Assembly (NCBI GenBank): GCA_013696745.1
Contig: JACCXZ010000194.1
Location: 1 to 35,500, forward strand
DNA length: 35,500 nucleotides
Direction of reading: 5' to 3'
DNA from: Nocardioidaceae bacterium
GTDB taxonomy: Bacteria > Actinomycetota > Actinomycetes > Propionibacteriales > Nocardioidaceae
Shown: piece by piece, positions 4,399 to 10,119 of the stretch
Position numbering within the stretch: the stretch's first letter is position 1
Layout: each line of letters starts with the position of its first letter
Program-made: the position numbers and the translations under genes
Notes under the pieces: model-generated
What the model was told of the DNA's origin: nothing
Databases searched by the model: none
What the model saw: the letters and a program-made list of their open reading frames with translations, nothing else

Positions 4399-5691
4399 AT
4401 GACCGAGCAGGGCAGCGAATGCACGCAGGCCGAGCGCCGGGTTCTCGACGCGATCGACGAGGACCAGATCGGCGCGGACCTCGTCGCGCTGGTGGGTTTC
4501 CCCAGCATCGATGGGACCGCCGCCGAGGCCGAGGTGCAGGCGTGGTGCGCCGAGCGGTTGCGCACGTTGGGCATGGCTGTCGACCACTGGCTCACCGACG
4601 TGCGCGACCTGGCCGACGACCCCGCATACCCGGGCATGGAGGTCGAGCGCACCGGGGTCTGGGGATGTGTCGGACGTACCGGGCGGGCCGACCGTGAGGA
4701 GGCCCCGGCGCTGGTGCTCAACGGCCATGTCGACGTGGTACCGGCCGGCGACCTGGACCTGTGGCCGGATCGCGCACCGTTCACGGCGCGGCTGGCGGAG
4801 GGCTCCTGGTGGGGTCGTGGCACCTGCGACATGAAGGGCGGGGTGGCGGCCATCCTCGGCGCCGTGAATGCCCTGTCGCAGGCCGGGGTCCAGCTGACCA
4901 GGCCGCTCGCGGTCCACACGGTGACCGGCGAGGAGGACGGCGGCATCGGCACCTTTGCCACCCTGCGGCGCGGTCACGTTGGTGAGGCATGCGTGATAGC
5001 CGAACCGACCGACGGGGCGATCGTGCCGGCCAACGCCGGATCGCTCACCTTCCGCATCACTGTCGCCGGCCTCGCCACCCACGGGTCCACGCGTACCCGT
5101 GGTGTCAGCGCCGTGGAGAAGTTCGAGCGGGTGCACGAGGCACTGCGTCGGCTCGAGGCTGAGCGCAACGCCGACCTGCCCGACCTCTTCGCCCACCTGG
5201 ACGTCGGCTGGCCGCTGTCGGTCGGACAGGTGAACGCCGGTGACTGGGCGAGCACGGTGCCGGACCGGCTGATCGCCCAGGGGCGGTACGGCGTGATGCC
5301 GGGCGAGTCGGTGCAGGACGCCAAGGCTGCGCTCGATATCGCGGTCGCGCAGGCTTGCCGGGCAGACCCCTGGCTGCGTACGCACCCGGCCCTGGTCGAG
5401 TGGCCCGGCGGCCACTACGCCTCGGGCAGCCTGCCCGAGGGGCACCCGCTGCTCGACGACGTCGCGGCTGCGGTGCGAGCTGTGGGCGGTCCACGGCCGG
5501 ACGTGCTCGGGGGACCCTACGGCTCAGACTTGCGACAGTACGCAATGGCCGGAGTGCCGACCCTGCAGTACGGCCCCGGCCAGGCAGTCTTCGCGCACGC
5601 AGTGGACGAGCACGTCTCCGTCGACGAGGTGGTGCGGTGCGCCCGGGCGTACGCGGTCCTGGCACTGCGGCTGTGCGGAGAGCAGGCGTGA
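4399..5691 (+). CDS. M20 family metallopeptidase (ArgE/DapE/acetylornithine deacetylase-like)
   Basis: 430 aa; LVLNGHVDVVPAGD, WWGRGTCDMKGG, TGEEDGGIG motifs of M20 metal centre. Confidence 0.92.
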   Translation: MTEQGSECTQAERRVLDAIDEDQIGADLVALVGFPSIDGTAAEAEVQAWCAERLRTLGMAVDHWLTDVRDLADDPAYPGMEVERTGVWGCVGRTGRADREEAPALVLNGHVDVVPAGDLDLWPDRAPFTARLAEGSWWGRGTCDMKGGVAAILGAVNALSQAGVQLTRPLAVHTVTGEEDGGIGTFATLRRGHVGEACVIAEPTDGAIVPANAGSLTFRITVAGLATHGSTRTRGVSAVEKFERVHEALRRLEAERNADLPDLFAHLDVGWPLSVGQVNAGDWASTVPDRLIAQGRYGVMPGESVQDAKAALDIAVAQACRADPWLRTHPALVEWPGGHYASGSLPEGHPLLDDVAAAVRAVGGPRPDVLGGPYGSDLRQYAMAGVPTLQYGPGQAVFAHAVDEHVSVDEVVRCARAYAVLALRLCGEQA

Positions 5692-5699
5692 AATGACGG

Positions 5700-5730
5700 A
5701 GGCCCCTCCATGTATGAGATGGAGGGGCCT
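5700..5730. terminator. Stem-loop, candidate intrinsic terminator after the M20 gene
   Basis: AGGCCCCTCCAT-GTATGAG-ATGGAGGGGCCT, 12 bp perfect stem, 7 nt loop, 8 nt after stop; no clear U tract. Confidence 0.6.
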
Positions 5731-6099
5731 CGCGTTCGCGGCTGTCCCATCCGAGGCGCCGGCAGAGCCGACGACTCGGATGTTCCGGGGATGACGCCCC
5801 GACCATGTCGACCACCCCAGCCACCGAAGTGGCTGCAGTGACCGGTCTGGTCTGCACCGCCCGACCGGAATCTCGCGAACCCGACGCTGCATCATCAGCG
5901 TCGCCGTGCGGGTCGCCCCGCTCGGTGTGGCTCGTAGTTCCTCCCAGCCGTCCTTCACCACGTCGAACCGGGTGTCACCGCCAGGTCTCCCCGGCTGCTT
6001 CCCGCTCCGTCGTGCTGGAGTGATGGAACTGTAAGCCCGCACGACTGGGACCGGGCAAGGGGTTTCAGACGCCAATTTCGACACGACCGTCGAGGATGG

Positions 6100-6242
6100 T
6101 GGGGACAACGTGTGGACGACGTGTGGACGACGTGTGGACAGTCACGCACAGCGTGTGGACGCTCAGTGAGCACGGCATCACCCACCTGCGCCGACCCGTC
6201 ACCTGGCTGTGGACAACCAACTTCCCCACAGGCTGTGGACGA
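6100..6242. promoter_or_regulatory. Cluster of DnaA-box-like 9-mers
   Basis: TGTGGACAA (reverse of TTGTCCACA) perfect at 6208; 8/9 matches at 6100, 6111, 6122, 6133, 6234; 7/9 at 6154 and 6222 (other strand); first four spaced exactly 11 bp. Confidence 0.55.
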
Positions 6243-6341: not shown

Positions 6342-6473
6342 TCAGGAGCGTTTGCGCCGCTGGAGAGCCCGGCGGGTGCGAGCCTCGGACTGGCCCAGCA
6401 CCTTCGCCAGCAGGGTGACGCGAAAGACGTACGCGACCGCGACCAGCGCGATGATCAGCAGGATCCACTTCAT
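6342..6473 (-). CDS. Small single-TM hypothetical protein (43 aa)
   Basis: Reads MKWILLIIALVAVAYVFRVTLLAKVLGQSEARTRRALQRRKRS*, N-terminal hydrophobic helix plus basic tail; absent from the supplied ORF track. Confidence 0.5.
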   Translation of the reverse strand: MKWILLIIALVAVAYVFRVTLLAKVLGQSEARTRRALQRRKRS

Positions 6474-6598: not shown

Positions 6599-8239
<1,641 letters not shown>

Positions 8240-9696: not shown

Positions 9697-10119
9697 GAGG
9701 CCTCCTGGTCATCTTCCCCGCGGGCGGATCTCGCCGCGGGACGGACGTGGCACCGTGACCGCCGATGGCCTCGTCCCCAAAAGGACATTGCTGGTCAAGA
9801 TCGGTGGCGGGTTGCCGGGGCTTCAGCGGGCCGTGTCCCTCTGCCCCTCGTGATGAACGCCATCATCGTAGGGAGACGGCACCTGCCGTCACGAACCTGG
9901 TGTCCAACAAGTAAGACGATAGTCCGCAATATGGATGGTCTGCCAGGGCGGCTGACCGGAGACCGCGTGGAGCTGGCCGTCTACCCCGAGCCGGCAGCCG
10001 TCGTGCTGACCGTGCGCTCGGCCGGCACGGAGGGGCGGGCTCGGCCCCCGGCTGTTGCGGCATCGCACCAACGCGCCCTGCCAGGACGGCGGCACGACGG
10101 GCCGGGTGTGACCGGGCCT

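What the first reader, a model, noticed from the sequence alone, without database searches (positions are those of the whole stretch)
6100..6242. Helically phased array of DnaA-box-like 9-mers far from any dnaA/dnaN
Against the actinobacterial consensus TTGTCCACA (reverse TGTGGACAA): one perfect site (6208-6216), five 8/9 sites (6100, 6111, 6122, 6133, 6234) and two 7/9 sites within ~145 bp. The first four are spaced exactly 11 bp, so they lie on one helix face. The gap has no long credible ORF and no replication genes nearby. Inference: a DnaA titration or regulatory cluster, functionally like datA/DARS or Bacillus/Streptomyces DnaA-box clusters.
Basis: partly seen in the sequence, partly recalled or inferred. 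Interest (0 to 1): 0.62.

Follow-up and report, generated by a model that had tools for sequence, protein, structure and literature searches.

The report
DnaA-box array upstream of unknown RNA
In a small group of uncultured actinobacteria, a dense, helically phased row of binding sites for the replication starter protein DnaA sits just upstream of a previously undescribed, strongly folded RNA gene of about 320 bases, suggesting that DnaA controls this RNA or that the two form one replication-linked control unit.

Summary
Six sites at most one mismatch from TTGTCCACA, plus GCGTCCACA, lie in 143 bp (6100-6242), all on the minus strand; four are exactly 11 bp apart. In 27 relatives' origins the commonest boxes are TTGTCCCCA, TCGTCCACA and TTGTCCACA, the array's own variants. 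Scored with that oriC-derived matrix, the array holds 7 strong boxes; no relative's origin has more than 4 in 143 bp, and no 250-bp window in 241 kb of control DNA reaches 4.

The boxes, all pointing the same way, lead into a conserved ~320-nt structured RNA (about 6021-5699, minus strand) ending in a strong hairpin: folding z -7.7, 25 of 101 pairs with compensatory changes, no Rfam family. Among 298 relatives the RNA occurs only in four genomes of three related genera. All four have boxes at the same distance upstream, although flanking genes differ. The related genus g22 lacks both.

Best reading: a DnaA-bound regulatory region of a new non-coding RNA gene. A datA-like titration site is the main rival. 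DnaA binding and RNA expression are inferred, not shown. Extra-oriC DnaA clusters are known; one paired with a new RNA family is not, as far as I could search.

The parts
6234..6242 (-). DnaA box TCGTCCACA (most distal from the RNA)
   Evidence: 14.7 bits by oriC-derived matrix
6222..6230 (+). weak opposite-strand box TTCCCCACA, doubtful
   Evidence: 2 mismatches, not among sites >=8 bits
6208..6216 (-). perfect DnaA box TTGTCCACA
   Evidence: 15.8 bits
6154..6162 (-). DnaA box GCGTCCACA (2 mismatches)
   Evidence: 12.2 bits
6133..6141 (-). DnaA box CTGTCCACA, first of four at 11-bp period in the direction of transcription
   Evidence: 12.9 bits
6122..6130 (-). DnaA box TCGTCCACA, 11-bp period
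   Evidence: 14.7 bits; tandem unit
6111..6119 (-). DnaA box TCGTCCACA, 11-bp period; with the next box it forms the pair whose counterpart is kept in relatives
6100..6108 (-). DnaA box TTGTCCCCA, closest to the RNA gene
   Evidence: (commonest box variant in relatives' oriC), 28: 13.5 bits
6028..6058 (-). tentative promoter of the RNA: TTGCCC (6058-6053), 19-nt spacer, TACAGT (6033-6028)
   Evidence: read from sequence; relatives have CATAGT, TATGGT, TAGTGT at about the same place; the generic scan found no promoter, so weak
5699..6021 (-). conserved structured non-coding RNA gene of about 320 nt (start approximate)
5699..5731 (-). 13-bp perfect hairpin GAGGCCCCTCCAT-ctcatac-ATGGAGGGGCCTC, 3' end of the RNA (likely terminator, no T-tract)
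   Evidence: the 36-bp match to G015 is 100% identical
6342..6473 (-). small conserved membrane-protein ORF (43 aa, MKWILLIIALVAVAYVF...), between groEL and the array; not part of the module
6599..8224 (-). groEL (flanking gene)
   Evidence: TIGR02348, 815 bits
4399..5691 (+). M20-family deacylase/peptidase gene, convergent with the RNA (flanking gene)

Best explanation
The array is a DnaA-binding upstream regulatory region of a small non-coding RNA gene. DnaA, probably ATP-DnaA, binds head to tail on one face of the helix at same-facing 9-mers separated by 2 bp. This is the geometry that lets DnaA load cooperatively on the E. coli oriC arrays. The filament ends about 75-80 bp upstream of the start of a ~320-nt structured RNA and would change its transcription with DnaA level or nucleotide state, and so with replication or growth. 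The locus would also hold several DnaA molecules, so mild titration is a likely by-product. Shown by computation: the sites, their match to family oriC boxes, the phasing, the RNA's conserved structure, its strand and its linkage to the boxes. Inferred: DnaA binding, promoter position, expression, direction of regulation, and what the RNA does.
For: Sites match oriC boxes of the family in exact variants and in matrix score. The RNA has folding z -7.7 and -6.3 with its hairpin; without the hairpin the sense strand gives -5.0, -3.9, -4.4, -3.2, antisense is weaker in each, and ten control segments scatter around 0. 92% of cells pair, and 25 pairs have compensatory changes against 11.4 in shuffles and 2-6 in slid controls. 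No reading frame of the sense strand is open in all four. Boxes occur upstream of the RNA in 4 of 4 genomes: 7, 6, 4 and 1 sites of at least 8 bits, with one at about -100 in each, while no 250-bp window of 241 kb control DNA has 4. Three genomes have a pair of scored sites 11-12 bp apart at that place; in G029 the partner is a 2-mismatch site. Flanking genes differ while boxes and RNA stay together: groEL-ORF43-[module]-M20 here, groEL-nucleotidyltransferase-[module] in G007, groEL-[module]-nucleotidyltransferase in G029 and G015. Genomes without the RNA, including related genus g22, lack box clusters downstream of groEL. E. coli arrays have same-facing sites separated by exactly 2 bp (PMC4451416).
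Against: No binding or expression data. dnaA is not on this incomplete assembly (85%), so its own DnaA and oriC cannot be checked. The promoter is weak and found by eye. G029 has only one or two good boxes. Only four sequences of the RNA were found in what I could search. Boxes 80-220 bp upstream are far for a classical repressor.
Confidence: 0.55

Rival explanations
1. datA-like or Streptomyces/Bacillus-like DnaA titration or inactivation cluster: the boxes act on DnaA, and the adjacent RNA gene is only a neighbour, or its transcription tunes DnaA occupancy, as tRNA read-through does at E. coli datA.
For: More strong boxes than any relative's oriC. datA is an intergenic box cluster whose state is tuned by transcription from the neighbouring tRNA operon (PMC10950094), and such clusters repress untimely initiation in B. 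subtilis and S. coelicolor (PMC5742627). In complete relatives groEL lies roughly 0.46-0.82 Mb from dnaA (coordinates), so the locus may be copied early.
Against: Boxes keep a fixed place relative to the RNA and not to groEL; G029 retains only one or two good boxes, poor for titration; absent from most of the family.
Confidence: 0.25
2. The sites bind another regulator with a GTCCAC-like motif that controls the RNA; DnaA is not involved.
For: DnaA binding was not measured; spacing of 11-13 bp would also suit other head-to-tail binders.
Against: TTGTCCCCA, TCGTCCACA and TTGTCCACA are the three commonest box types in relatives' oriC; the oriC-trained matrix gives 12-16 bits to all seven.
Confidence: 0.1
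3. Local 11-bp tandem-repeat expansion without function.
For: Units at 6110, 6121 and 6132 are near identical.
Against: Strong boxes at 6154, 6208 and 6234 lie outside the repeat; a phased pair with different linkers is kept at the same place in relatives.
Confidence: 0.06
4. A displaced oriC or second origin.
For: Box density exceeds that of relatives' oriC; own dnaA-dnaN region is missing from the assembly.
Against: No dnaA or dnaN nearby; no AT-rich unwinding region (lowest GC 0.53 per 60 bp); relatives carrying the module have boxes after dnaA as usual (G007, G015, G029).
Confidence: 0.04

Closest known systems
E. coli oriC low-affinity arrays (R5M-tau2-I1-I2 and C3-C2-I3-C1)
   Same: Four same-facing 9-mers with 2-bp gaps on one helix face (PMC4451416)
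   Different: Here the four are near-consensus boxes, not in an origin, and lie upstream of an RNA gene
E. coli datA
   Same: Intergenic DnaA-box cluster outside oriC next to a transcribed stable-RNA gene
   Different: No IHF site known; different neighbours; position and DnaA-ATP hydrolysis untested; here the RNA is downstream of the boxes and of unknown type
Streptomyces coelicolor and B. subtilis DnaA-box clusters (Smulczyk-Krawczyszyn 2006, Okumura 2012, cited in PMC5742627)
   Same: Clusters of DnaA boxes outside oriC; S. coelicolor is also an actinobacterium
   Different: Original papers not held here, so gene context not compared; no linked structured RNA mentioned in the passages of the review I read
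Ms1 RNA of actinobacteria (PMC9130861, PMC4191392)
   Same: Stand-alone ~300-nt RNA with a 3' hairpin
   Different: Ms1 lies beside a HAD hydrolase gene and is reported in Nocardioides, Marmoricola and Aeromicrobium; this RNA lies by groEL, is absent from most of the family, and is multi-branched

Membership tests
DnaA-box cluster outside oriC (general kind) | Several boxes matching the species' own oriC boxes, in excess of chance, away from dnaA/dnaN | tested here: met
   own oriC not on the assembly, family oriC used instead
DnaA-box cluster outside oriC (general kind) | Binds DnaA and alters initiation | not testable with these tools
   needs EMSA/ChIP-seq and origin:terminus ratio
E. coli datA | IHF-binding site among the boxes | not tested
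   no IHF-like site was looked for; the actinobacterial IHF-type protein has no agreed site consensus (own knowledge)
E. coli datA | Stimulates hydrolysis of DnaA-bound ATP | not testable with these tools
   biochemical assay needed
DARS | Core of three boxes with box I opposite to II and III at fixed spacing | tested here: not met
   all seven strong boxes face one way; definition from PMC5742627
oriC | Next to dnaA/dnaN with an AT-rich unwinding region | tested here: not met
   neighbours are groEL and an M20 gene; lowest GC 0.53
Ms1 RNA | Beside HAD hydrolase/oxidoreductase genes | tested here: not met
   groEL, M20, nucleotidyltransferase neighbours; definition PMC9130861
Ms1 RNA | Sequence similarity to Ms1 of other Nocardioidaceae | tested here: inconclusive
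   model R1 hits 4 of 298 relatives only, whereas Ms1 is reported in several genera of the family; no Ms1 sequence was at hand for a direct comparison
Any Rfam 15 family | Score above the family's cut-off | tested here: not met
   best is Ms_IGR-8, 22.9 bits against a cut-off of 44, over the 3' hairpin end only

The most novel reading that the evidence does not exclude
A replication-initiator-controlled non-coding RNA: DnaA polymerises on a phased array and switches a new RNA family on or off with replication, and the RNA in turn adjusts replication, DnaA or growth functions, making an RNA arm of the initiation control circuit in actinobacteria.
Probability: 0.3. Interest if true: 0.8.

Novelty: new variant of a known kind. 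Interest (0 to 1): 0.6.

Why it matters
DnaA is known to regulate several genes, but the review of DnaA as a transcription factor that I searched has no mention of sRNA or non-coding RNA. A conserved module of phased boxes plus a structured RNA would give a concrete, testable link between replication initiation and RNA-based control, and adds an RNA family absent from Rfam. It also suggests that 11-bp phased same-facing boxes are a reusable DnaA platform outside origins, since similar arrays precede dnaB in Propionibacteriaceae.

Tried and rejected
Own dnaA/oriC search: absent from the assembly. Family-wide RNA model searches with n=400 and n=350 failed on the server; replaced by searches of genera g8 and g16. 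Protein explanations of the gap: frames in the gap have no family match and no sense frame of the RNA is open in all four. Mobile origin: no match of the RNA region in phages or plasmids. Ms1/6S identity considered and not supported. The Kribbella-like box cluster (L007) was checked for a neighbouring structured RNA: none (z about 0 to -1.9). Literature searches for DnaA boxes with sRNA promoters returned nothing; the Streptomyces cluster paper is not held.

Full report
Setting. The window is contig C93 of an incomplete metagenome-assembled genome (2.6 Mb, 202 contigs, 85% complete). The three public records that share the module are titled 'Nocardioidaceae bacterium' MAGs, and they are placed in the same family as the window's genome. 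The array sits between an M20-family gene (4399-5691, plus) and groEL (6599-8224, minus).

Observation. All claimed sites are real and at the claimed places. Four are exactly 11 bp apart, all strong ones face the same way, and the cluster is the densest of its kind in the assembly by a pair test (4 of 5 TGTGGAC pairs within 30 bp).

Are they DnaA boxes? I took dnaA plus downstream DNA from relatives and read the boxes in 27 origins: TTGTCCCCA 12, TCGTCCACA 11, TTGTCCACA 9. These are the array's own variants. A matrix trained on those origins scores seven array sites at 12.2-15.8 bits. No relative's oriC holds more than four such sites in 143 bp, and the Poisson chance of seven is about 3e-16. 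The DnaA proteins of module-bearing relatives end in the canonical DNA-binding domain (recognised by eye). DnaA binding is therefore likely, though unmeasured.

What lies next to them. A DNA comparison of the gap showed 71% identity over about 320 bp to a relative, on the far side of the boxes. Reading four genomes side by side gave one layout: boxes, then about 80-95 bp, then a conserved ~320-bp stretch ending in a perfect 13-bp hairpin. That stretch folds far better than shuffled versions (z -7.7 and -6.3). Without the hairpin the sense strand gives -3.2 to -5.0, the antisense strand is weaker in all four, and ten other window segments scatter around 0. The common structure pairs 92% of cells, with 25 compensated pairs against 11.4 in shuffles and 2-6 when the partners are slid. 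It has no Rfam match above cut-off, no shared open sense frame, and no phage or plasmid copy. I conclude that it is a non-coding RNA gene; its transcription has not been seen.

Linkage. A covariance model finds the RNA once each in four genomes of 298 relatives: this one, two of genus g8 and one of g16. The groEL tree groups g1, g8 and g22, and the DnaA tree groups g8, g16 and g22, both with moderate support. Genus g22 has neither boxes nor RNA after groEL, and a second g16 genome gave no match, possibly an assembly gap. All four carriers have boxes upstream of the RNA: 7, 6, 4 and 1 scored sites, with a box at about -100 in each. Three have a pair of scored sites 11-12 bp apart there; in G029 the partner is a 2-mismatch site. 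Such sites are rare elsewhere near groEL in the family: no 250-bp window of 241 kb has four. Flanking genes change between the four genomes while boxes and RNA stay together, so the boxes belong with the RNA gene rather than with groEL.

Mechanism. Same-facing sites with 2-bp gaps are the geometry of the E. coli oriC arrays, which support progressive cooperative loading (PMC4451416). Here such a filament would end close to the putative promoter (TTGCCC-19-TACAGT, weak). The simplest account is that DnaA regulates the RNA gene. A titration role is the main rival, and the two can coexist: at datA, transcription and DnaA occupancy influence each other (PMC10950094). Whether DnaA activates or represses, and what the RNA does, is open.

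Origin of the array. Units at 6110, 6121 and 6132 are nearly identical, so this lineage probably expanded an ancestral phased pair; the pair's linkers differ in relatives.

Verdict. Observation confirmed; interpretation partly supported and incomplete. New variant of a known kind: an extra-oriC DnaA cluster tied to a new RNA family. The weak points are four sequences only, no experimental data, and an assembly without its own dnaA.

Noticed in passing
L010:1499-1529 (G085) and L011:1499-1560 (G095): Genomes of family f2 of the same order (probably Propionibacteriaceae) carry DnaA-box arrays (G085: CTGTCCACA, TTGTCCACA, TTGTCCACA exactly 11 bp apart) directly upstream of a gene that reads as the replicative helicase dnaB.
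   Followed up: partly
L007:1501-1593 (G081): A large-genome relative of the same order (probably Kribbella) has five near-consensus DnaA boxes in 93 bp between a cupin-like gene and a ptsI-like gene; no structured RNA follows.
   Followed up: partly
window 6342-6473, minus: A 43-aa membrane-protein ORF downstream of groEL is conserved in about ten family genomes, in some a few kb from groEL; family libraries were not searched with it by itself.
   Followed up: partly
window 9706-9859, minus: SAM riboswitch directly upstream of a gene that scores as threonine synthase.
   Followed up: no
L009:1501-1529 and L014:1501-1529 (G013): An identical TGTGGA(G/C) triple at 11-bp period occurs at two places 1.5 Mb apart, in duplicated DNA next to the same small secreted-protein-like gene.
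   Followed up: no
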